Assembly: GCA_030710605.1 (NCBI GenBank)
Contig: CP092879.1
Span: 45,756,626 to 45,820,625, forward strand
DNA: 64,000 nt
DNA from: Cordylochernes scorpioides
Lineage: Eukaryota > Arthropoda > Arachnida > Pseudoscorpiones > Chernetidae
Reading direction: 5' to 3'
Shown here: positions 532 to 59,600 of the stretch, piece after piece
Layout: each line of letters begins with the position of its first letter
How positions within the stretch are numbered: the first letter of the stretch is position 1
Notes under the pieces: generated by a model
Told to the model about the DNA's origin: nothing
The model's database searches: none
Seen by the model: the letters and a program-made list of their open reading frames with translations, nothing else
Made by a program: the position numbers and the translations under genes

Positions 532-885
532 TGTAATCGGAAGAAAATTGGGATATACTTTTATAAAAATATCTAAAAACCTTACGCAATAAGTTTCTCT
601 CTCTCTCTCACTTTATATATATAGAAGTTTTTAGATATTTTAATTAAAGTGTATGTAATATATAATTGTGGGGATAGAATAAAACACTCCAGAGGTTAGA
701 AGTGGCATGGGAGGCTACGGTCCTAGAAAATAGGTGCTGGCGCGGCTCGAGCAATGAGATTGTCCAGTGCGACGACATCTCGTTTGACATCTAAACCCAA
801 CTGTCGTTAACATCGTCCTCTTTCCTTAAAGCTAATTGACCAATAGATAGGATCTTAACTGTCTTTAACAAGCCCCTCGCTCTTT
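532..885. other. Non-coding, CT microsatellite
   Basis: A (TC)n tract at about 598-611. The part from 690 to 885 is less AT-rich but shows no usable reading frame and I do not recognise it. Confidence 0.4.
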
Positions 886-1176
886 TTATAGCCGACGTAA
901 ACTAGCGGCCTCGGGTCGGTGACAAAGCCACAACACCAGCTTTGGCAAACTGAGAAGCATCCACCTGGAGATCATTGTTTCGGGGTAAAGGCCCTTATCA
1001 GTTCGGGGTAGACTTTATTCTATGAGATCCATAAGGGATCTAATGGTATTTTCGCAATCCGTCAAAGAGGTGTTTAGTTGTAGACCATGGTCTCCATATG
1101 GACGCTTCTCAGTTTACCAAAGCTGGTGTTGTGGCTTTGTCACCGACCCGAGGCCGCTAGTTTCCGGGGACTGTCA
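886..1176. mobile_element. Foldback element F1, inverted pair (hammerhead family)
   Basis: Two arms face each other: the left arm (about 900-1000) and right arm (about 1095-1170) are reverse complements built on GGTGACAAAGCCACAACACC and CAGCTTTGGCAAACTGAGAAG. The left arm carries, on the minus strand, a decayed hammerhead core (CTGATAA, GGGC/CCCC stem, GAAAC); the right arm keeps only the 3' half (ACCATGGTC) on the plus strand. Same family as the intact motif at 12423-12477. Confidence 0.65.
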
Positions 1177-1770
1177 ATAGATGGCGTCTAGCTACCATGT
1201 ACAAAACCGCAACTTTATGTTGTATATTTATATGTACCAAATGACAGAATATGAACAAAGGAATAAACATATAAAACAGGTAGTCCAGAACACGACCATT
1301 TTCCATGTTTTATACTTTCAAACGCAGTATGTAAATAAATGTGACCCTAAAGGGATTCAGGTATGACCCCCACGTCATGAAGTAATACCTCTAATGAGGC
1401 ACGAAGCGGTTTTACTACCATTAGCTTCCCCGCGTATCTATAAAGTTCCGTTAAAAAAATTAATACTGTTGTGATTTGCATAGAGGACACGGTGAATTAT
1501 ATTTACATATAGGAGTGTTTCACTAAATGAGGTTCCCAACTCGGGACTTACACAACATGTGTCAACGTTGCCTGATGATACAGCAGTTTTGTGTTACTCT
1601 GTTTTTTTTTTTTTTTTTTACAACCGTCGTCTGGAAGTTCCCACTACCTGCTTTAACTCGTCTGTCATCGCTTCAGTGAGATTCCTGTGTGTGTACCGTA
1701 CAATACCTATTCATGATAAAAGTGTGAAAAACGTTTTAAAATATTTTCTCACAATGAGTTTCTTTTTATC
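1177..1770. other. Non-coding
   Basis: No gene recognised. A homopolymer T tract lies at about 1600-1618. Short open frames here have no protein-like composition. Confidence 0.4.
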
Positions 1771-6439: not shown

Positions 6440-7640
6440 ATATTGCGTATGTAAACATCAGCAACTTTCAGTTGCACGATAAGGAGATGCCTTTTTTCAT
6501 AATTTATGCACCTTATCCCAGTACAATATCACATCTGTACTATTTTTTCACATTGTGTCACGGTCTCACGCAATTCTGGCCTTAACTACCCGTTTCATGA
6601 TTTTTCAGGATGCCTTAAATGACCAGTTTTTTGGTCGTTGAGGTACAGCTTGCACCACGCTGATGAGGGCCAACAGCCCGAAACGCGTACGTGGTTAGCT
6701 TTTCTTGATTAATCAAGAATGGGTAATTGGCCAATTCTGGAATAATTAGAAATCAAGGAGAATAGTTGATATTTATTCCGATAGATGGCGCAAGCCATCA
6801 GCAACTTTCAGTTTCACGATAAGGAGATGCCTTTTTCATAATATTACGTAAGGTTTTTCAATTAAAGAAAGGTATTGCAAAAGGTTTTTCGATTTTTTTA
6901 TAAAAGTAAAAATCGCAAATTTCTTATATCTGAAAAAATGAACCCAAAAAACTTCGAATTTTTTGGAATATTATAGAATGAAGCTGTATAAGAAATCCCT
7001 TTGTCTGGCTAGATGGAGAAGTAAATAAAGAAAAATTTTCCACGTAAGTGAAAAATAGTACAAAAGTGAATTTTTACTTGGATCAGATGATAAATTGAGA
7101 AAAGGGGCATTTTTTGATTGTGAAATTAAAAGTTGCTGATGGCTTGCGCCATCTATCGGAATAAATATCAACTAATTGTTGATTTCTTTATTTATTCCAA
7201 AATTGACCAAAAATACCGTTTCTTGATTAATCAGAGAATTTAAAAATATTGGAAAAATCGACGATTAGTTGATATTTATTCCGATAGATGGCGTAAGCCA
7301 TCCGTAACTTTTAGTTGCACGATCAGGAAATTCCCCTTTTTCTCAATTTATCTACCTGATTCAAGTACAAATTCTACTTTTGTACTATGTTCACCTACTG
7401 AATGTGTTTCTTTATTTACTTCTCCATCTAACCAGACAAAGGCATTTCTTATACACGATCAGGGAATGCCTTTTTTTCTCAATTTATCCACCTGATTCAA
7501 GTACAAATTCTACTTTTGTACTATTTTCACCTACGGAATATGTTTCTTTATTTACTTCTCCATCTAACCAGACAAAGGCATTTCTTATACACGATCAGGA
7601 AATGCCCCTTTTTCGCAATATTACGTAAGGTTTTCGAATA
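6440..7640. repeat. F2 repeat array (hammerhead family)
   Basis: A block of rearranged copies of one family. Recurrent pieces are ATAGATGGCGCAAGCCATCAG, GCAACTTTCAGTTGCACGAT, GGAGATGCC, and TTGATTAATCAAGAA. Pieces occur in both orientations (7100-7190 inverted to 6780-6850), and 7318-7610 contains a direct tandem duplication of about 140 bp. One unit (6590-6770) carries an intact hammerhead-ribozyme motif. Fragments of the family recur at 13255, 24150, 25650 and 27700. Confidence 0.6.
6655..6694 (+). ncRNA. Hammerhead ribozyme motif, type I, short stem III (F2)
   Basis: All conserved core positions are present. Stem I is CCACG (6655-6659) with CGTGG (6690-6694). The CTGATGA box is at 6660-6666. 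Stem II is GGGC/GCCC with a CAACA loop (6667-6679). GAA is at 6680-6682. Stem III is AC/GT closed by GC (6683-6688), with H17 = A at 6689, so cleavage is predicted after position 6689. Outside stem I, GCT (6649-6651 region) and AGC (6697-6699) can extend the pairing. A two-base-pair stem III is the form known from Penelope-like elements and animal retrozymes. Activity is inferred, not shown. Confidence 0.72.
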
Positions 7641-10139: not shown

Positions 10140-10392
10140 TTTATGCCAAACTACATTTATATATTTCTTGAAAATGAAGATACTTCGGCCAGTGAATCTT
10201 TTTATTACCTCGACGTTTCGACAAAAATCTTTTGTCCTCGTCAGGAGCAAACAAAAATTAAACATTCAGCAAGGCGTAATTATCGTAAATATTGAGGCTG
10301 CCTGGCCGGTATATTTCTTGAATTATCGTAAATATTGAGAAATATTAAGAAATATGAATGCCGGCCAGGCAGCCTCAATATTTACGATACAT
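10140..10392. mobile_element. Element F5 with hammerhead motif and palindrome
   Basis: Contains TTCGGCCAGTGAATC, an AAGATTTTTGTC-type hammerhead on the minus strand (10208-10249), then an inverted repeat whose arms (10293-10312 and 10362-10385) read TTGAGGCTGCCTGGCCGG and CCGGCCAGGCAGCCTCAA. Fragments of F5 recur at 28915-29005 and 61460-61500. Confidence 0.55.
10208..10249 (-). ncRNA. Hammerhead ribozyme-like motif (F5)
   Basis: Minus strand: CTC before CTGACGA (10244-10238). An unpaired G precedes stem II, GACAAAA/TTTTGTC (7 bp, tight loop). Then GAAACGTC (10219-10212) and GAGG, which pairs with the CTC. The core CUGANGA/GAAA is intact. Stem III would be only the palindrome ACGU without a loop, so a monomer may not fold; dimeric hammerheads with palindromic stem III are known. 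Moderate support. Confidence 0.45.
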
Positions 10393-12170: not shown

Positions 12171-12284
12171 CAATTTTTCAATGATTCTCGTTACTATCTC
12201 TACATATATAGTATCTGTAGTATTTTAAAAATATAGTTCAAAATTTACATATATACTGATAGATGATAAATTTGCCAGGAGGAA

Positions 12285-12562
12285 ATTGATCCATAGAAGC
12301 ATAGGGCGCCTCTCCCGTCATAATAAACGTCAAAACCTGACGCCATCTATTGACCGTCGCCGCAACTAGCGGCTTCGGGTCGGTGACAAAGCCACAACAC
12401 CAGCTTTGGCAAACTGAGAAGCGTCCACCTAGAGACCATGGTTTCGGGCTAATGGCCCTCGTCAGTCTAGGGCGGACTTTATTCCATGAGATCTACAAGG
12501 GATCTAATGATGACGTCAGGTTTTGACGTTTATTTTGACGGGAGAGGCGCCCTATGCTTCTA
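12285..12562. mobile_element. Foldback element F1, short copy
   Basis: Terminal inverted repeats of about 50 bp: 12290-12342 (AGCATAGGGCGCCTCTCCCG...) and 12510-12562 (its complement). Inside is one F1 arm with an intact hammerhead on the minus strand. Neither strand codes. Confidence 0.7.
12423..12477 (-). ncRNA. Hammerhead ribozyme motif, type I, complete (F1)
   Basis: Minus strand, 5' to 3': outer stem I GTCC, inner stem I CCTAGA, box CTGACGA (position 7 is free to vary), stem II GGGC/GCCC with CATTA loop, GAA, stem III ACC/GGT with AT loop, C17, then TCTAGG and GGAC closing stem I. All invariant core residues and the canonical GUC cleavage triplet are present, and ten stem-I pairs form with a small internal loop. 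Related but damaged copies: 22518-22572 (+), 19460-19515 (-), 955-1005 (-). Confidence 0.78.
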
Positions 12563-12771
12563 TATACTGATAGGCAAAAATTAAAGAACACAATTATTTT
12601 ATTGAATTTGAAAAAAAAAAAATACAATATCGTAAAATGGCTTTCATGCGTTAAAGTTAAAGATTTTGAATGATTTTTTTTTTTAAGCAACCTATCTCCC
12701 TGGAAACCTGATTCAGCCATATTTTTTTAGGATATAATCTCTCATGGGAGACTCTGTCTCAACTGTATATT

Positions 12772-18034: not shown

Positions 18035-18479
18035 TTTCCATACTCTGCATACTTGCCTTTTATGTACAGTATAAACTCCCTTTAGCGGACACCCTGCTAT
18101 CACTCTCTACAAAGAGCAGTTTTCATTGCCAAATTTGCCATTTTTACTATTTAGTAACTCTCTGGAAAGAGGACATCTCTCCCTAAAGGACACTTTGGCT
18201 TTGCAATTAGATGTTATCTTTCACAGTTAGGTTCTACTGTATTTTATAAATTTTAGTTTGTTCTTATATTAAATAAATTTCTTATAATTTAATTATGAAG
18301 GAATATATTGGATCAAAATATCATTTATTTCACCAATATCTTATAATAAATTGCTGTGTCATCCTGAAGTTTGTCTTTACTAATTTTAAACGTGACAATA
18401 TATGTATGTGCGCTAAATGGCATCTATGACTTTTAATAAATGTATTTAAAATATTTTTAGAACTTCTCAGAACGCGCTG

Positions 18480-18620
18480 TGTAATTTGGTTTCGAACTAT
18501 CCGCTTATCAGTACAGGAATTTCATAACATCCTACGGAAGGAAACCATGGTATACAAATAGGATTTGTTCAAATTTTCCACAAACCTGGATTGATCTGAC
18601 TAAATCTGTTTAAAGAAGAT
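18480..18620. repeat. F1-type inverted pair, second subfamily
   Basis: 18490-18515 (minus) has CTGATAAGCGGATAGTTCGAAAC; 18540-18556 (plus) has GGAAACCATGGTATACA. These are the two halves of a hammerhead-bearing F1 relative, facing apart and decayed. Confidence 0.4.
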
Positions 18621-18764
18621 TTGAAGAAGTTTAGTTGCGTTCAATAAGCATAAACTAATAAATGTACAAACTTTATGCATTTATTAAAGGGGAGAGGTGC
18701 CTCTTTCCGCACATGAATACCATACGTTTTTATAAGGTATATACACACACAAAAATCCTTATTA

Positions 18765-18905: not shown

Positions 18906-18999
18906 GTTTTTACAAGGTATTTATGTAATATAAAGTTGTAGGAGGATGATATTCATGTACCTAGAGGGGTACCTCTCCCTTTAATTATGCAAGGATACT

Positions 19000-19180
19000 A
19001 CTAAGGGGATACAAGCTTCTAAGACCAAAATATTTACCAAAAAGGTGTTAGGAAATCGAAGCCGCCCCTGTATTGACAAGGGCCATAGCCCGAAACCATA
19101 GTATACAGGTTGGATTTTGGTCTGAATTTTCCAAAACTGGTGTGGAGGCTCATTATTTATCATTACTAGCAACATGCATC
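19000..19180 (+). repeat. F1-type copy with degenerate hammerhead
   Basis: Plus strand: CTGTA, TTGACAA (decayed box), GGGC/GCCC hairpin, GAAACC, ATAGTA, TACAG. Stem I (CTGTA/TACAG) still pairs although the box has lost two core bases. Followed by CCAAAACTGGTGTGGAGGC, the family's flank. Confidence 0.45.
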
Positions 19181-19369: not shown

Positions 19370-19765
19370 TCTCGTCAAAACTAGACGCCATCTATTGACC
19401 GTCGCCGCAAACTAGTGGCCTCGGGTTGGTAACAAAGTCACAATACCAGCTTTGACAAACTGAGAAGCGTCCAACTGAAGACCATGGTTTCGGGCTAATA
19501 GCCCTTTTCAGCTCCAGGACGGACTTTATTCCATGAGATCCACAATGGATCTAATAGAATATTCACAATCCGTAAAGATATGTTTAGCTGCCAGAGTGGG
19601 CCATTAGCCTGAAACCATGATCTCTAGGTGGACACTTTCTCAGTTTGCCAAAGCTGGTGTTGTAGCTTTGTCATCAACCTGAGGCTGCTAGTTTGCAACG
19701 ACGGTCAATAGATGGGGTCTAGTTTTGACGTCTATCTTGACGGGAATGGCGAACTTTGTTTTTAT
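19370..19765. mobile_element. Foldback element F1, full inverted pair
   Basis: Ends CTCGTCAAAACTAGACGCC (19374) and its complement near 19720 form the outer arms, followed inward by GTCAATAGATGG and the GTGACAAAG/CACAATACCAGC block. The left arm has a minus-strand hammerhead with CTGAAAA (one core change, G8 to A). The right arm (19595-19645, plus) has GGGC/GCCT, GAAACCATGATC and a destroyed first box. Confidence 0.65.
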
Positions 19766-19825
19766 AGATCAATTTCCTACCGTCAAAATATTTCCATCTA
19801 TTAAAAGATTGGGTGTAAGATTTGA

Positions 19826-22282: not shown

Positions 22283-22390
22283 ATACAGTAGAACCTCCCT
22301 GTAAAGGACAGCACCTAATTGCAGAACCAAACTGTCCTTTGTGGAGAGGTGTCCTCTAGCGGGGTATCCGCTAAAGGGAGGTTCTACCAT
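22283..22390. mobile_element. Pogo-type MITE, short
   Basis: CAGTAGAACCTCCCTGTAAAGG at left and the complementary AAAGGGAGGTTCTAC at right. About 108 bp; the middle is deleted. Confidence 0.7.
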
Positions 22391-22419
22391 ATATGTATCT
22401 AAAGAAAGAAGCACCTCTC

Positions 22420-22815
22420 CCTTTACTTATACATCAGAACCATACATTATGTACATCATCCTGGTAAAAAAACTACTAGTGATGATAAAAAATGAGCCAC
22501 AACACCAGTTTTGGAAAGTCCGTCCTAGGCTGACGAGGGCTATTAGCTCGAAGCCATGGTCTCTAGACGAATGCTTCTCAGTTTACCAAAGCTGGTGTTA
22601 TGGCTTTGTTACCGACCCAAGGCTGCTAGTTTGCGGCGAAGATCAATAGATGGTGTCTAGTTTTGACGTCTATGAATATCCTCCCGGAAAATTTCCATAT
22701 AAGAGAAAAACACCAGTTTTGGAAAATTCAGACAAAAGGCTTACAACCTGGTTTCGGGCTATGGCTCTCATCAGTACAGGGTCGGCTTCGATTTCATCCT
22801 ACAAAAGAGGTTATG
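22420..22815 (+). repeat. Two F1 units in tandem
   Basis: Unit 1 (22490-22665): CACAACACCAGTTTTGG, hammerhead 22518-22572, CTTTGTTACCGACCC, GTCTAGTTTTGACGTCTATG. Unit 2 (22705-22810): ACACCAGTTTTGGAAAATTC, then the other subfamily's inverted hammerhead half with a perfect CTGATGA on the minus strand (22773-22767 region) but deleted stem III. Confidence 0.5.
22518..22572 (+). ncRNA. Hammerhead ribozyme motif (F1), one core change
   Basis: GTCC, CCTAGG, CTGACGA, GGGC/GCTC hairpin, GAA, GCC/GGT with AT loop, C, TCTAG. Same architecture as 12423-12477, but A15.1 is G (a wobble with U16.1) and the outer part of stem I is weakened. Probably slow or inactive. Confidence 0.55.
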
Positions 22816-28790: not shown

Positions 28791-29370
28791 GCTGTAACCA
28801 CCTCTTTCCACACTTTTCCATTGATTTATTAATGTCAATTATTCATATCTTCAACTTAGAGATAACAATTTTTAACGCCTTGCCAAATGTTTTATTTTTA
28901 TTTATTTCTCCTTACAAAAGATTTTTGTTGAAACGTTGAAAAGATAAAACTTTAACTAGCCGAAATGTCTATTTTTTTAAAAAGAAATATGAATGCCGGC
29001 CATGCAACTTCTATCTTCAAAATCAATTTAAGTTACTTATCATTCTAAAAAATGACAATAATATGTATATATATAAATTTTTAAACTTAAAAACAAGTAA
29101 AAATACGATAGTTGCTTGTACAGGTCAGTGGAGGCAGTGTTAATAGGTTAGCAGATGCCCGATGAGTCAAGGAAGAAAGTGAAAATGGGAACAATGTCGC
29201 GTATTTTTCCATCAGCCTGAGCTATTCATAGTAAGAAACGACGCACTCCCTGTCATTTACGTAGACTTATTCGACGTAGGAAACGTCACTGCTCTTCCAA
29301 ATAAATACGAGTCACACTTCTTGTAAACTTGAATTCATTACAATACATCTAGCCTTTTTATTATAGGACA
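28791..29370. other. Non-coding with F5 fragment
   Basis: 28918-29005 contains GATTTTTGTTGAAACGTTG and AATGCCGGCCATGCAAC, matching F5 (10.2 kb). Confidence 0.4.
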
Positions 29371-53600: not shown

Positions 53601-56600
53601 AGCTCCAAAAGAAATGGCCGCCTCTGACATGAGGAACAGGCGCCATGTGCAGTCGCTCCTAACATGGAGTACAAACGCTGCTCATCCTGTATCCCTGGAT
53701 CAGGAGCCCTTACAGGGTACTATCAGCTGGGCCAGCTGAGCCAAGGTTTTTTAGCGAGCTTATTACTGCTCCCCTTCCTCCTTTTACATCCGGGCTTTGG
53801 ACCAGCAAAGGTGGAGTTTCTTACCTTACATTCCCCAAGAGGTGTAGCTGGGTCTAGATTTAAAGGAAACTTTTAAATTGGAAGATTTGAATCTCAACTT
53901 CATAATGAAAGATTAAAATTGGTATCAGGCTTCATATTTTTTCAGCATTTTACAATCTCCACAAGAAAAAAGAACAAAATTAACAAGATTATAACATTGT
54001 TTTCATTATCCCACCATTTATTCATGTTAAAAGGCAAATTTAAAAAGAAGCTGTAAAGGTGAGATAAGGCACAATTTGGATTATATATAGTCTGCTAGTT
54101 TGTTTACATACTTGATAACAGTAACTATTTAAAACATTCTTTGATATATTTTCTCATTTAGTACTGTCTGATAATGGTAACAACACTGTTACCCAAATGT
54201 CACACACTATTTTTCTTTATTTGGATTTGGTCTTATTTTTACACACACACACATACAGATTTTTTAAGACCACCGGTCTTATACAGATTCACCACAGGAA
54301 GGAAGCATAGATGGAGTTCCTATACTCCAGGCAGCGCAGAGCCCAACAACCTCCAGGTCCGATCCATGTCCAATGGCCACAGAACCCACAATGCATAGGT
54401 TAGCGTATCACTGAAAAGGCAAGTGTGGAATCAGCAGCGTTTCAGTCTTCGCTTTCCTCATCCAAATGGACCACAACATTCAGCAATTCTATTAATCACC
54501 TCCGAACGGTGACTCCAGTATTTTAGAATTTATATAAACCAAAGAGAAGACCTTGATCAATAATTTTATTCATCCATTTGATCTTATTTGTATGGTGTTA
54601 TTTATGCCTTGTTATAAAAAAGGAAATACTCTTACCATAAGGATTTATATCGCTTAGTTTTATTTATTTAACTATTTACAAGGCAACATTATCTAACTTA
54701 TAACAATCACAGCTATGCCGGAACTTCCACCAGCCTAAGGTAAACAAAAACAGTAATGATGATGATCACCTTACCGATAAATCCGCCAGGTTGTCAGATG
54801 GTAACTTATTCTCAACACATTATTATCTTGTGTTTAAGCTGTAATGGGGTTTTCACAATTCAACCTTCATTTCAAGGAAAGGGCATCCCTAACAACAAGG
54901 AGATGTAGACATGAATTCTCTATTCATAATGTGGGTGTTAGAATCGTGGAGAGAGAAGGAGTTAACTCTTCCACCTAACACTTATACAAGTACAGTATAA
55001 CCTTGTTAATTCGACACACCCCAATTCGACACTCGGCGATAATTCGACCATGTTCCGATGTCCCGACCTCCGGCCTATCAAATAACAAACCGTAATTCGA
55101 CAGTATCGATAATACGACAGTTCCGATAGTTCGACCATTTTAAAATTCGAATTTCGACAGTTGAATGTTATTTTACATGCAACTTTACCGCTAAACGGTA
55201 TTACGGCGGCGACGATCGGCATCGGCGGGCGCCGATACGATCGCACCTGCGCACTTTTGGTTTCTGGTTAGTTTAAGTTTCACTTTGCAGTGCCGTTGCG
55301 CAATTTCGCGATGTTATTGTTGTTTTTTTTTTACGCGGGAATTTCGGCATCATGCGCTAACTAATAATAATTTTTATTTTTTTATTTTTAACATTGAAAT
55401 ATTTTAGCTATTTTTAAATTTATAAATAATTTCTTTTTAAATAAATAAATCTTTATAAAATGATCCAACAATGATTATGATAACATTTTAATAACCCCAA
55501 GGAGAATCCTCTGTAAGACCTGTGTGTCTTAATAAAGGCTTTTGTGTGTGTGTGTGTGATAACATTTTAATTCAATATTCTGTGTTAATTTGAATAAATG
55601 AGTGGGGCAAGAATGTCAGGTTCTGCCAAAAAAAATTGGAAACGTAGTCAGTATCACCAGCTCACTTATGTGGAAAAAATGAAAATTATAGAAGAAATAG
55701 AACAAGGAAAATCACATAGTCAAGTTTCCAGAGAGAGAAATATTCCACGGTCCACCATTAGCACAATTTTTTAAAATAAATTCGCCATAAAATCTGCCTT
55801 TTTAAAATCTAATTTTAGCTCTACCTTGAAACGTGATCGTGACGGGAAATTCCCAGAGATTGAAGAAGCCCTGTTTAGGTGGATAAGGCAGGCAAATGCC
55901 ATGAAACTTGCCATAAATGGCAATATCTTGAAAGAAAAGGCTATACTCTTGGCCTTGAAAAAAAATGGGTCAAGATAATTTTGAAGCTAGCAATGGCTGG
56001 CTAGAAAAGTTTAAGGCCAGAAGGAATATTGCTTTTAAACGACTTCATGGAGAAGCTGGAAGTGTGGATGCCAATGCTGATGAAACAGGGTTATTTTATA
56101 AACTTTTGCCTAATCAAACAATGACTATCAGAGGTGAGAAATGTGAAGGGGGTAAGAAGTCTAAAGAGAGAATTACAGTGTTGGTATGCTGTAATATGGA
56201 TGGAAGTGAAAAACTGCCTTTACTTTATATTGGGAAATATAGAAGACCACGATGCTTCCATGGCATGAATATTCCCTCAAATTATCATTTTAATAAAAAA
56301 GCCTGGATGACTGGGGCAATTTTTACGGATTGGCTGAAAAAATTGGACCAAATATTCAAAAGAAGAGAAAGAAAAATTTTATTAATTTTAGATAATTGCC
56401 CAGCCCACCAAATACCTGAAGGGTTACAGAACATTGAAATAAGATTTTTGCCCGCCCTAACTACAAGTGCATTACAACCCTGTGATATGGGTATCATTAA
56501 AGCCCTAAAAGACCAATATAGGAAACGAATGATAACGTATCTTCTCACTTGCATGGAAGAAAAAAAAAATGCTCAAGTGCATTTACTCTTTGCAATTAGC

Positions 56601-59600
56601 TGGCTAGAGGCTGCATGGGTTGGGGTTAGTTCTTCCACAATAAAAAATTGTTTTTCTCATTCAGGATTTGTGATGGATGAAGCAATGGAAGAAGTTGTTG
56701 AAGAAGAAATGAACAGATGTTTTGAGGCATTAAAAAAACATCAAGCCATTGATGTCAACTATATTGACTTCTTGGAAGTTGATAAAGATGTGCAAGTTGC
56801 TGGGGAACAGTCCATTGAAGAAATTGTAAAGGAGGTAATGGGTAAAGAAGAAGATGAAGAGGTAGAGCCAACAGAAAAAGATTTAAACAAAACATCAATA
56901 ACACCTGCAGCAGCAGTGGATGCCTTTAATACAATAAAAACTCTTTGCTATTTAAAAGACATTTCTGAGGAAGAAAGGCATGCATGTCTTTTAAAAATAG
57001 ACTATCTGGAATACATCCTGAATAGGATTTCAGAGAAAAAACAGACATCTATAAAAGATTTTTTTTTTTTAATCTTGATTATTTTCAAATAATATTTTTT
57101 AATTTTCTTTTTATTTTCCATATTTATTTTCTTTAAACTATTATTCACACAATTGGAATAAAATATTATTTGTTTCGAAAATATGTATTATTGCCATTTT
57201 GTCCCAGATACTAAAAGTTATTCATGAAAATAAAAAATAAATATAAAAAAGTACACACACAATGGTTTCAATTAATATCATTAATTTATATTACAAAGCT
57301 ATTTATAAAAAAATATTCTTTTTAAATAAAACAATTTCTACTGTCCTTACTGCAATGGAAAAATTAAAGGGAGGGCCTGGCTCATTGATAACAGATGGCG
57401 CGCTAGTGCATCATAAAAAAAATATATATATTATTTTAGCTAGTTAGATGATTAGCTAATCATCTAACCTTAATTCAACACTTCCTTTAATTCAACCGAA
57501 AGCTCTTGGGGTGTTGAATTAAAGAGGTTCGACTGTATTACACATGGGAGTCCTCACCTGAGCTGCCTCGGAAGATTCCACACTTAGGACTTCAGAAACT
57601 TTCTTGAGAGCCACATCAGGATAGACTTTGTAGGTCCGGTAGAGGAATCCGGACTTACAGAGCTCAACCACCTGGAGCTTGGAGGTTGCCTGGAACATTA
57701 CAAGATGGTGGTGATGCAAACAGCCGTGGATCTAAATACCATTTGATATACAGTAGAACCACCCTGTAAAGGATAATACCTAATTGCAGAGCCAAAGTGT
57801 CCTTTAGGGAGAGGTGTCCTCTCACAGGAGAGTTGCTAAATAGTAAAAATGGTCATTTTGAAAAACTGTCCTTTGTAGAGAGGTGTCCGCTAAAATGAGG
57901 TTCTACTGTATATAAATAAAACATTACTAAAGCTACAATAACTCAGTTACACAGCTCTTAGTCTTGCCTGCTGTAATATGCATTGATGTAATATGTATGC
58001 TCCAGTAACATGGGATAATAAAGGCATATGCAATAGGGGTGGACATATTTTTCTATATAAATAAAACATTACTCAATCTTGCAATAACTCCGTTACACAG
58101 CTCTTAGTCTTAACTGCTGTAATATGCATTGATGTAATATGTATGCTCCAGTAACATGGGATAATAAAGGCATATGCAATAGGGGTGGACATATTTTTCT
58201 ATATAAATAAAACATTACTCAATCTTGCAATAACTCTGTTACACAGCTCTTAGTCTTAACTGCTGTAATATGCATTGATGTAATATGTATGCTCCAGTAA
58301 CATGGGTTAATAAAGGCATATGCAATAGGGGTGGACATATTTTTCTATATAAATAAAACATTACTCAATCTTGCAATAACTCTGTTACACAGCTCTTAGT
58401 GTTGCCTGCTATATTTATCTTGATGTAATATGTATGCTGCAGTAACATGGGTTAATAAAGGCATATGGACTATGTGTAGACCTGTTTGATATATTAATAA
58501 AAAATTACTCAATCTTGCATCTCGCTTCTCGGCCTTTTGGCTAAGATCAAAGTGATGTACTCAATGATGTACTCAATCTTGCAATAACTCAGTTACACAG
58601 CTCTTAGTTTTTAATTTAAAAGGCATATATTGGATCAAAATATCATTTATTTTTTATCATTTTACCAATATTTCAGTTGGCTGAATGCCAACCTTTATCA
58701 AGGTGTTATAACATTTTAAAGTGTGTCAACAACAAACTCCTGTTAAATTTTATAACACCTTGATAAAGGTTGGTGTTCAGCCAACTGAAATATTGGTAAA
58801 ATAAATGATATTTTGATCCAATATATGCCTTTTTAATTAAAGATTTATTTATGGATTGCTCTATTTTCAAAACAGCTCTTAGTGTTGCCTGCTGTAATAT
58901 GCATTGCTAAAATATGTACGCTCCAGTAACATGGGTTAATAAATTTGAGACTCATAGAGAGGAGGCATGATATCACCTCAATGATGATTGCACCAAGGAC
59001 CATCATGGAGGCAGGAAATCTTGTGTACATCACACAAGGTACCTCTGACAGCTCTTTACGTATTCAAGGAACAATCCTGGGGTTTATGATTTTGTCATTG
59101 TGAAAGTTGTGACAGCAACCTTTTCTGTTATTCTTCATGGCCTCAGTCTTCTACTGGCCTTTCCTAAAGGCATAGGACTTGAGACCAAGGCCTTCATGAA
59201 CAGTTCTGTCAATTGTCATTTGGTCAATTTCCACTTCCTTATGATGGCTTTCATTCTCTTTCCTAAGGAATTTGCTAATATTCTTCTTAACATTTTGATA
59301 AATCTTTGTCTTTTAACCTGTCCAATAAATTCAAGGTGTTTTCTCTTTGATAAGGTACAATTTAGATTATAAACACAAGGTAATAAGACCAAATCCAAAT
59401 AAATAGTCCTCTTCTTCTCTTTCTTATCATCACTCAATCATATTAGGGTGTCAAGCCTGTAGAGCTTGAGACTTGACAACCATCATGACTGGGTGAAGTT
59501 GTCTGCCTTTGTCATTAAGACTGGGAGCACTACTCAGTGGCAGGCCGACTTAACTCCAAAAGAAATGGTCGCCTCTGACATGAGGAACAGCCGCAATGTG

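What the first reader, a model, noticed from the sequence alone, without database searches (positions are those of the whole stretch)
12423..12477. Complete hammerhead ribozyme in a foldback repeat (family F1)
On the minus strand every invariant hammerhead position is present: CUGACGA, GAA, A15.1-U16.1 and a GUC cleavage site. Stem I has 6+4 pairs, stem II 4, stem III 3 with a two-base loop. Related copies at about 960, 19490, 22518 and, in a second subfamily, 18500, 19090 and 22770 show graded decay, so the motif is ancestral to the family. Hammerheads with very short stem III are known in Penelope-like elements and animal retrozymes. No Penelope RT is in the window, so these would be non-autonomous relatives.
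Basis: partly seen in the sequence, partly recalled or inferred. Interest (0 to 1): 0.88.

Follow-up and report, generated by a model that had tools for sequence, protein, structure and literature searches.

The report
Hammerhead retrozyme inserted like Penelope elements
This is a real self-cutting RNA motif (by sequence) inside a small mobile element of about 320 bases, present in many thousands of copies in this animal genome, and the way its copies sit in the chromosomes points to Penelope-type retrotransposons as the machinery that moves it.

Summary
The hammerhead at 12423-12477 (minus) is real as a motif and not chance. It belongs to a ~320-nt repeat found as head-to-tail or permuted copies in the window's own 2.62-Gb genome: 16,928 exact core matches, reversed-pattern control 0. 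In size, tandem layout and type I ribozyme it matches the animal retrozymes of Cervera & de la Pena 2020.

The foldback is an insertion product, not a separate transposon type. Of 47 foldbacks mapped, 47 have the sense 3' ends outward. In 38 one outer end lies near monomer position 177 and the other near 142; 9 have an end outside these bins; none has two equal ends. A shared flank of 9 nt or more is seen in 17 of 38 (7.1% of mismatched pairs), in AT-rich sites. Two Penelope-like foldbacks of this genome show the same layout: a tail of 22 or 32 nt on one arm and 12-13-bp duplications. Inserts run through the cleavage site, and breaks there show no peak, so templates were circles or uncleaved multimers.

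The papers read name Penelope elements only as likely movers; this is direct structural evidence. Cleavage, circular RNA and the partner enzyme remain untested.

The parts
12423..12477 (-). type I hammerhead ribozyme; predicted cut between 12434 (C17) and 12433
12250..12262 (.). left copy of the 13-bp target site duplication TATATACTGATAG
12561..12573 (.). right copy of the 13-bp target site duplication
12259..12509 (-). first arm of the retrozyme insertion (sense on minus strand), monomer positions R176 back round to R245; outer end is site A (overlaps the duplication by 4 nt)
12509..12563 (+). second, inverted arm, monomer positions R88-R142; outer end is site B
12263..12292 (-). tail: monomer sequence between site B (R142) and site A (R177), present on one arm only
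881..1188 (.). older foldback copy of the same family; hammerhead 959-1014 (-) has lost G8
19373..19801 (.). older foldback copy with two hammerhead remnants on opposite strands, 19469-19525 (-) and 19586-19633 (+)
22515..22673 (+). partial copy with a nearly intact hammerhead 22517-22572 (A15.1 to G)
19060..19115 (+). hammerhead remnant of a second family (stem I CCUGUA/UACAGG, GUA cut site)
22732..22787 (-). hammerhead remnant of the second family
18471..18524 (-). weak hammerhead remnant of the second family (14.8 bits, E 0.04)
6647..6700 (+). intact hammerhead of a third family (stem III ACGCGU, GUA cut site); 26,554 exact pattern matches in the genome
10203..10244 (-). minimal hammerhead of the Penelope-element type (stem III ACGU)

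Best explanation
The motif is the ribozyme of an animal retrozyme: a small, non-autonomous retroelement with a ~320-nt monomer. Transcripts of tandem copies would be cut by the hammerhead into monomers and closed into circles (inferred from the family; not shown here). A Penelope-type enzyme (reverse transcriptase plus GIY-YIG endonuclease) cuts both strands of an AT-rich site, about 9-13 bp apart. Each target strand primes copying of the RNA at one of two internal start points 35 nt apart: one strand at R177 (tail), the other at R142 (no tail). The two cDNAs grow towards each other along or round the RNA, past the ribozyme cut site, and are joined, often at short overlaps. This gives the foldback flanked by a target site duplication. 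Shown by sequence: the ribozyme motif, the monomer, the two preferred ends, outward arms, duplications in a good part of the copies, passage through the cut site, and the same layout in Penelope-like elements of this genome. Inferred: cleavage, circles, and that a Penelope enzyme acts in trans.
For: Ribozyme: two descriptor hits against 0.01 expected; 5 of 6 stem I pairs changed on both sides between families, 90.1% of cells paired against 18.9-41.0% for slid partners; 16,928 exact core matches, control 0. Retrozyme: 320-nt monomer head to tail; blocks longer than 320 nt in 26 of 43 and 13 of 40 insertions, though some low-identity ones are overextended. Ends: of 66 sense 3' ends in 41 insertions, 38 fall at R171-184, 23 at R139-150, 5 elsewhere; the 16 sense 5' ends are spread from R7 to R301. 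Pairing: 47 of 47 foldbacks face outward; 38 with one end of each type, 0 equal, 9 with an end outside the bins. Duplications: shared flank of 9 nt or more in 17 of 38 against 7.1% of mismatched pairs; flanks 75-76% AT, window 65%. Same layout in two Penelope-like foldbacks with arms 100% identical over 577 and 541 nt: tail 32 nt with 12-bp duplication, tail 22 nt with 13-bp duplication. Published parallels: a purified Penelope protein cleaves and extends both strands, starts internally, and its tail is the stretch between two start sites (PMC11167929, main text); an inverted pLTR pair with a 31-bp tail on one (PMC3846280, passages).
Against: No end-sequence similarity was found between this retrozyme and the Penelope loci fetched, so the partner is not identified. 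A shared flank of 9 nt or more was seen in only 17 of 38, and a few of those are pure TA runs (L038, L039, L078). The core is only slightly better conserved than other positions among 51 copies (1.1% against 2.0% departures). In the published Penelope system hammerhead mutants did not affect insertion in vitro. The end bins were set after seeing part of the data, and 9 of 47 foldbacks do not fit them at one or both ends. Some loci are segmental duplicates. No RNA data.
Confidence: 0.8

Rival explanations
1. The ribozyme is a passenger: uncleaved multimeric transcripts are the templates, and neither cutting nor circles are needed for movement. (Compatible with Penelope-type insertion; a rival only for the role of the ribozyme.)
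For: Breaks at the cut site are not enriched: 40 places, against 84 and 11 at two control positions. In the Anolis Penelope element hammerhead mutants still inserted. Core conservation only slightly higher than elsewhere.
Against: Pairing kept through compensatory changes across three families, and two matched stem II variants in 91 of 100 listed copies of the third family with no mismatched mixture of the two (my count). Published retrozymes form abundant circles (PMC7229834, abstract, part of the results, discussion).
Confidence: 0.25
2. The retrozyme is moved by a LINE-type enzyme, and the foldbacks come from LINE twin priming.
For: LINEs can also give inversions and variable target site duplications (recalled, not tested).
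Against: Both outer ends lie mostly at two internal start points with the sense 3' ends outward; LINE twin priming leaves one 3' end and an internal inversion (recalled). The one-tail layout is that of Penelope elements here and in print.
Confidence: 0.08
3. The foldback is a DNA transposon (MITE or foldback element) that captured a hammerhead.
For: Terminal inverted repeats of 55 nt and a direct repeat at 12250/12561.
Against: The two ends differ by a 35-nt tail; inserts are permuted, tandem and of variable inner extent; 17 of 40 sampled loci have no inverted arm; shared flank length varies. No transposase-bearing relative was looked for beyond the window.
Confidence: 0.03

Closest known systems
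Animal (non-LTR) retrozymes, Cervera & de la Pena 2020 (PMC7229834; abstract, part 1 of 3 of the results, discussion and search passages seen)
   Same: Type I hammerhead with short helix III, monomer within 170-400 nt, tandem copies, target site duplications longer than 4 bp, thousands of copies.
   Different: There described as tandem repeats; here 23 of 40 sampled loci are foldbacks with two preferred ends 35 nt apart. The words 'inverted' and 'foldback' have 0 occurrences in that paper's main text.
Penelope-like elements (PMC11167929 main text; PMC3846280 passages)
   Same: Two internal start points, optional 30-40-bp tail, inverted pLTR arms, duplications of about 8-13 bp, AT-rich targets, a hammerhead in the pLTR.
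   Different: The 320-nt retrozyme is too small to code for reverse transcriptase and endonuclease, has a full type I ribozyme rather than the minimal one, and its tail shows no similarity to those of the Penelope loci fetched.
Small dimeric hammerheads of Penelope elements (Luense et al. 2017; seen only as a reference entry, otherwise recalled)
   Same: Self-complementary stem III that could pair between two RNAs.
   Different: Here stem III can also close in cis (3 bp, 2-nt loop) and stem I is long with an internal loop.

Membership tests
Hammerhead ribozyme, type I | Invariant core, three helices, stem III closed by a loop, NUH cut site | tested here: met
Hammerhead ribozyme, type I | Reaches an Rfam gathering score | tested here: not met
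   the search of the genome with RF00163 gave 0 matches, but it also rang in 0 of 14 control genomes
Hammerhead ribozyme, type I | Loop-loop tertiary contacts | not tested
   an internal loop in stem I and a 5-nt loop II are present; contacts were not modelled
Hammerhead ribozyme, type I | Self-cleavage | not testable with these tools
   no bench data
Animal retrozyme | Monomer of about 170-400 nt in tandem copies | tested here: met
   320 nt; third family five copies at 338-bp steps
Animal retrozyme | Monomer carries a type I hammerhead | tested here: met
   36 of 51 copies fully intact
Animal retrozyme | Target site duplication longer than 4 bp | tested here: met
   clear only in part of the copies
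Animal retrozyme | Expressed as circular RNA | not testable with these tools
   no RNA data
Penelope-like element | Codes for RT and GIY-YIG endonuclease | tested here: not met
   monomer of 320 nt; no match of seven Penelope protein pieces in the window
Penelope-like element (insertion mechanism) | Outward inverted arms, tail on one of them, duplication | tested here: met
   same in two Penelope loci
DNA foldback transposon or MITE | Equal termini and fixed duplication length | tested here: not met

The most novel reading that the evidence does not exclude
Retrozymes and Penelope elements share an obligately asymmetric double-start reverse transcription: on a circular (or multimeric) RNA the two target strands always prime at different internal start points, one with and one without the tail, so that the paired enzyme must be coordinated on the template; foldback retrozymes are the frozen record of this.
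Probability: 0.4. Interest if true: 0.8.

Novelty: new variant of a known kind. Interest (0 to 1): 0.68.

Why it matters
Which enzyme moves the very abundant animal retrozymes is open; the papers seen here name Penelope-like or Terminon elements as likely candidates from shared features and co-occurrence (PMC7229834; PMC7761336, passages). Here the insertions themselves carry the Penelope layout, with start points that can be tested in a reconstituted reaction. The 38-to-0 rule of unequal ends is a quantitative constraint on how a Penelope-type enzyme uses both target strands; in vitro the published protein showed no difference in start site between strands.

Tried and rejected
Rfam: no hammerhead at gathering score; only HH9 at 6644-6709, E 0.21, in the permissive search. 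Viral contigs: a 27-base pattern of the ribozyme had no match. The first genome pattern had the wrong loop length (15 N); it still gave 36 places of diverged relatives, control 0; its loci L040-L069 are left out of the end counts. Search for a peak of breaks at the ribozyme cut site failed: 40 places against 84 and 11 at two controls; part of the 40 look like two-base deletions rather than breaks, and only two control positions were tried. Breakpoint listing: of three apparent ends at R1, two come from overlapping BLAST blocks (L028, L070). Selection on the core: inconclusive. A shared end sequence with a Penelope partner was not found. L119/L120 lie inside coding sequence and gave no ends. 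DNA transposon origin rejected on unequal ends. The host was not identified. Pfam on L118:2370-3899 gave no family although the genome search scored GIY-YIG there. The fold of the 6640-6705 segment is hardly better than its shuffles (z -0.58).

Full report
Observation. The minus strand at 12423-12477 reads as a complete type I hammerhead. A descriptor scan (stems I and II of 3 bp or more) found two hits in the window, this one and 6660-6689 (+), both with a 6-bp stem I; 100 simulated sequences with the same dinucleotide frequencies gave 0.01 hits each at the same setting. A core-only pattern is not significant (14 matches, 9.74 expected), so the stems carry the evidence. The minimum-energy fold of the 55 nt is better than most shuffles (z -2.71) and has stems I and II, but pairs core and cut-site bases rather than stem III; a 3-bp helix with a two-base loop is weak. 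Stem III, ACCAUGGU, is a perfect palindrome and could form 8 bp between two RNAs.

Structure support. Eleven ribozymes of three families (seven places in the window; L048, L052, L057, L065) were aligned. With the hammerhead structure 90.1% of cells pair, against 18.9-41.0% when partners are slid, and 5 of 6 stem I pairs change on both sides between families. MAFFT used no structure, but the sequences were chosen as hammerheads, so this is support and not an independent discovery. In the third family two stem II variants (GGGC/GCCC and GCGC/GCGC) make up 91 of the 100 places listed; 9 depart, and none mixes the two (my count; the pattern itself fixes the inner bases).

The element. A DNA search with 12263-12563 gave 98 matches (40 of 3823 candidates scored). 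Neighbouring copies show a monomer of 320 nt, head to tail in L028. I number it from the first base after the cut (R1); the core begins at R289. The exact pattern CTGANGA-N13-GAAACCATGGT has 16,928 places, control 0. The monomer RNA folds far better than its shuffles (z -5.75). Of 51 ribozyme copies in L001-L039, 36 are fully intact.

Ends. In 41 insertions of at least 85% identity from L001-L039 (duplicates included), 66 sense 3' ends fall at R171-184 (38), R139-150 (23) or elsewhere (5), while the 16 sense 5' ends are scattered. That set was chosen by similarity to a query that includes the tail. I therefore took the first 40 loci in coordinate order on contig 1 from the ribozyme pattern list (fetched): 23 are foldbacks, all in minus-plus order, 17 with one end of each type and 6 with an end outside the bins; of 17 single inserts 8 end at the R142 type, 6 at the R177 type, 3 elsewhere. 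This sample requires an intact core. Over both sets, after dropping one exact duplicate (L029), 47 of 47 foldbacks face outward, 38 have unequal ends, none equal, 9 have an end outside the bins. The bins (165-195 and 135-158) were set, and a few loci are likely segmental duplicates (L004/L008, L034/L035), so I take about 36 events as independent. The loci (L040-L069) and the window's own copies were not counted. My hand counts of opposite-strand neighbours in the listed places (capped lists): within 1 kb, 11 of 11 minus then plus; within 1 kb, 7 of 8; Penelope hammerhead, within 2 kb, 10 of 10; GIY-YIG matches, within 4.2 kb, 11 of 11.

Duplications and junctions. Among 38 foldbacks with both end types the longest shared flank string averages 9.2 nt against 6.1 for mismatched pairs, and is 9 nt or more in 17 of 38 against 7.1%. 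Clear cases are 11-13 nt; a few long ones are pure TA runs. Flanks are 75-76% AT; the window is 65%. The window's own element has TATATACTGATAG on both sides. Inner junctions of 32 foldbacks: 20 with an overlap of at least 1 nt, 1 exact, 11 with 1-9 extra bases.

Template. Blocks longer than one monomer occur in 26 of 43 and 13 of 40 insertions; some low-identity blocks are overextended by BLAST, but clean ones reach 639 nt at 98% and 749 nt at 92%. A linear RNA cut by the ribozyme would give at most ~177 nt of cDNA from these start points. Breaks exactly at R1 are not enriched (40 places; 84 at R318, 11 at R8). So templates were mostly continuous through the cut site: ligated circles or uncleaved multimers. 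This does not show that the ribozyme cuts.

Penelope elements in the same genome. GIY-YIG matches are abundant (150 scored of 17,015 candidates). L091, L093 and L094 carry minimal hammerheads; Pfam confirmed GIY-YIG in the L091 and L093 pieces tested. The exact pattern of this hammerhead has 6,842 places. L118 holds a reverse transcriptase segment (RVT_1, E 1.1e-15). Of three foldback Penelope-like pairs fetched, two show their ends: one arm flush and the other with a tail of 32 or 22 nt, and duplications GATTCAGGTAAT and CAAATTATGCTAT; the third lay inside coding sequence and gave no ends. L091 also has a tail on one arm only, by eye. This is the retrozyme's layout.

Known work. The purified Anolis Penelope protein cleaves and extends both strands, starts internally at two sites, and the tail is the stretch between them; hammerhead mutants still insert; its strands did not differ in start site (PMC11167929, main text). 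In rotifer Penelope, one of the inverted pLTRs may carry a 31-bp tail, with 8-10-bp duplications (PMC3846280, passages). Animal retrozymes are described as tandem repeats, with Penelope elements proposed as movers from shared features and co-occurrence (PMC7229834: abstract, part 1 of 3 of the results, discussion, passages; PMC7761336: passages). Full-text searches for retrozyme with Penelope and inverted and for three of hammerhead ribozyme, inverted repeat, retrozyme, target site duplication (8 of 11 listed) showed no paper on foldback retrozymes by title or abstract start; most subscription papers are not held, and Cervera & de la Pena 2014 could not be read.

Conclusion. The thing is a retrozyme family of an unnamed animal, and its foldback form is best read as insertion by Penelope-type double-start priming. 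The partner enzyme, circles and cleavage remain to be shown.

Noticed in passing
6647-6700 (+), direct repeat 6456-6496 / 6796-6836: A further retrozyme-like family with an intact hammerhead (stem III ACGCGU) and a 41-nt direct repeat 340 bp apart; 26,554 exact pattern matches in the genome, including five copies at 338-bp steps.
   Followed up: partly
10281-10389: A 32-nt inverted repeat made of the Penelope tail sequence (..GCCGGCCAGGCAGCCTC..), next to the Penelope-type hammerhead at 10203-10244.
   Followed up: partly
about 28880-28990 (+): A decayed Penelope-type hammerhead and end, seen only in a fuzzy scan.
   Followed up: no
L090, L095, L118: Long open frames with a GIY-YIG-like domain upstream of a further region that looks reverse-transcriptase-like by eye, as in Naiad-type Penelope elements with permuted domains (recalled).
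   Followed up: no
18682-18720, 18946-18987, 22340-22430 against 12300-12330: The families seem to share a GGGAGAGG(T/C)GCC-like motif, in the first family close to the no-tail end; it may be a binding or start signal. Seen by eye only.
   Followed up: no
58521-58670 (+): Start of a U2 snRNA fused to other sequence (Rfam U2, 39.9 bits, below gathering score), possibly a U2-headed SINE.
   Followed up: no
55959-57092 (+): Open frame of 377 aa that looks like a Tigger/pogo-type DDE transposase (by eye, recalled).
   Followed up: no
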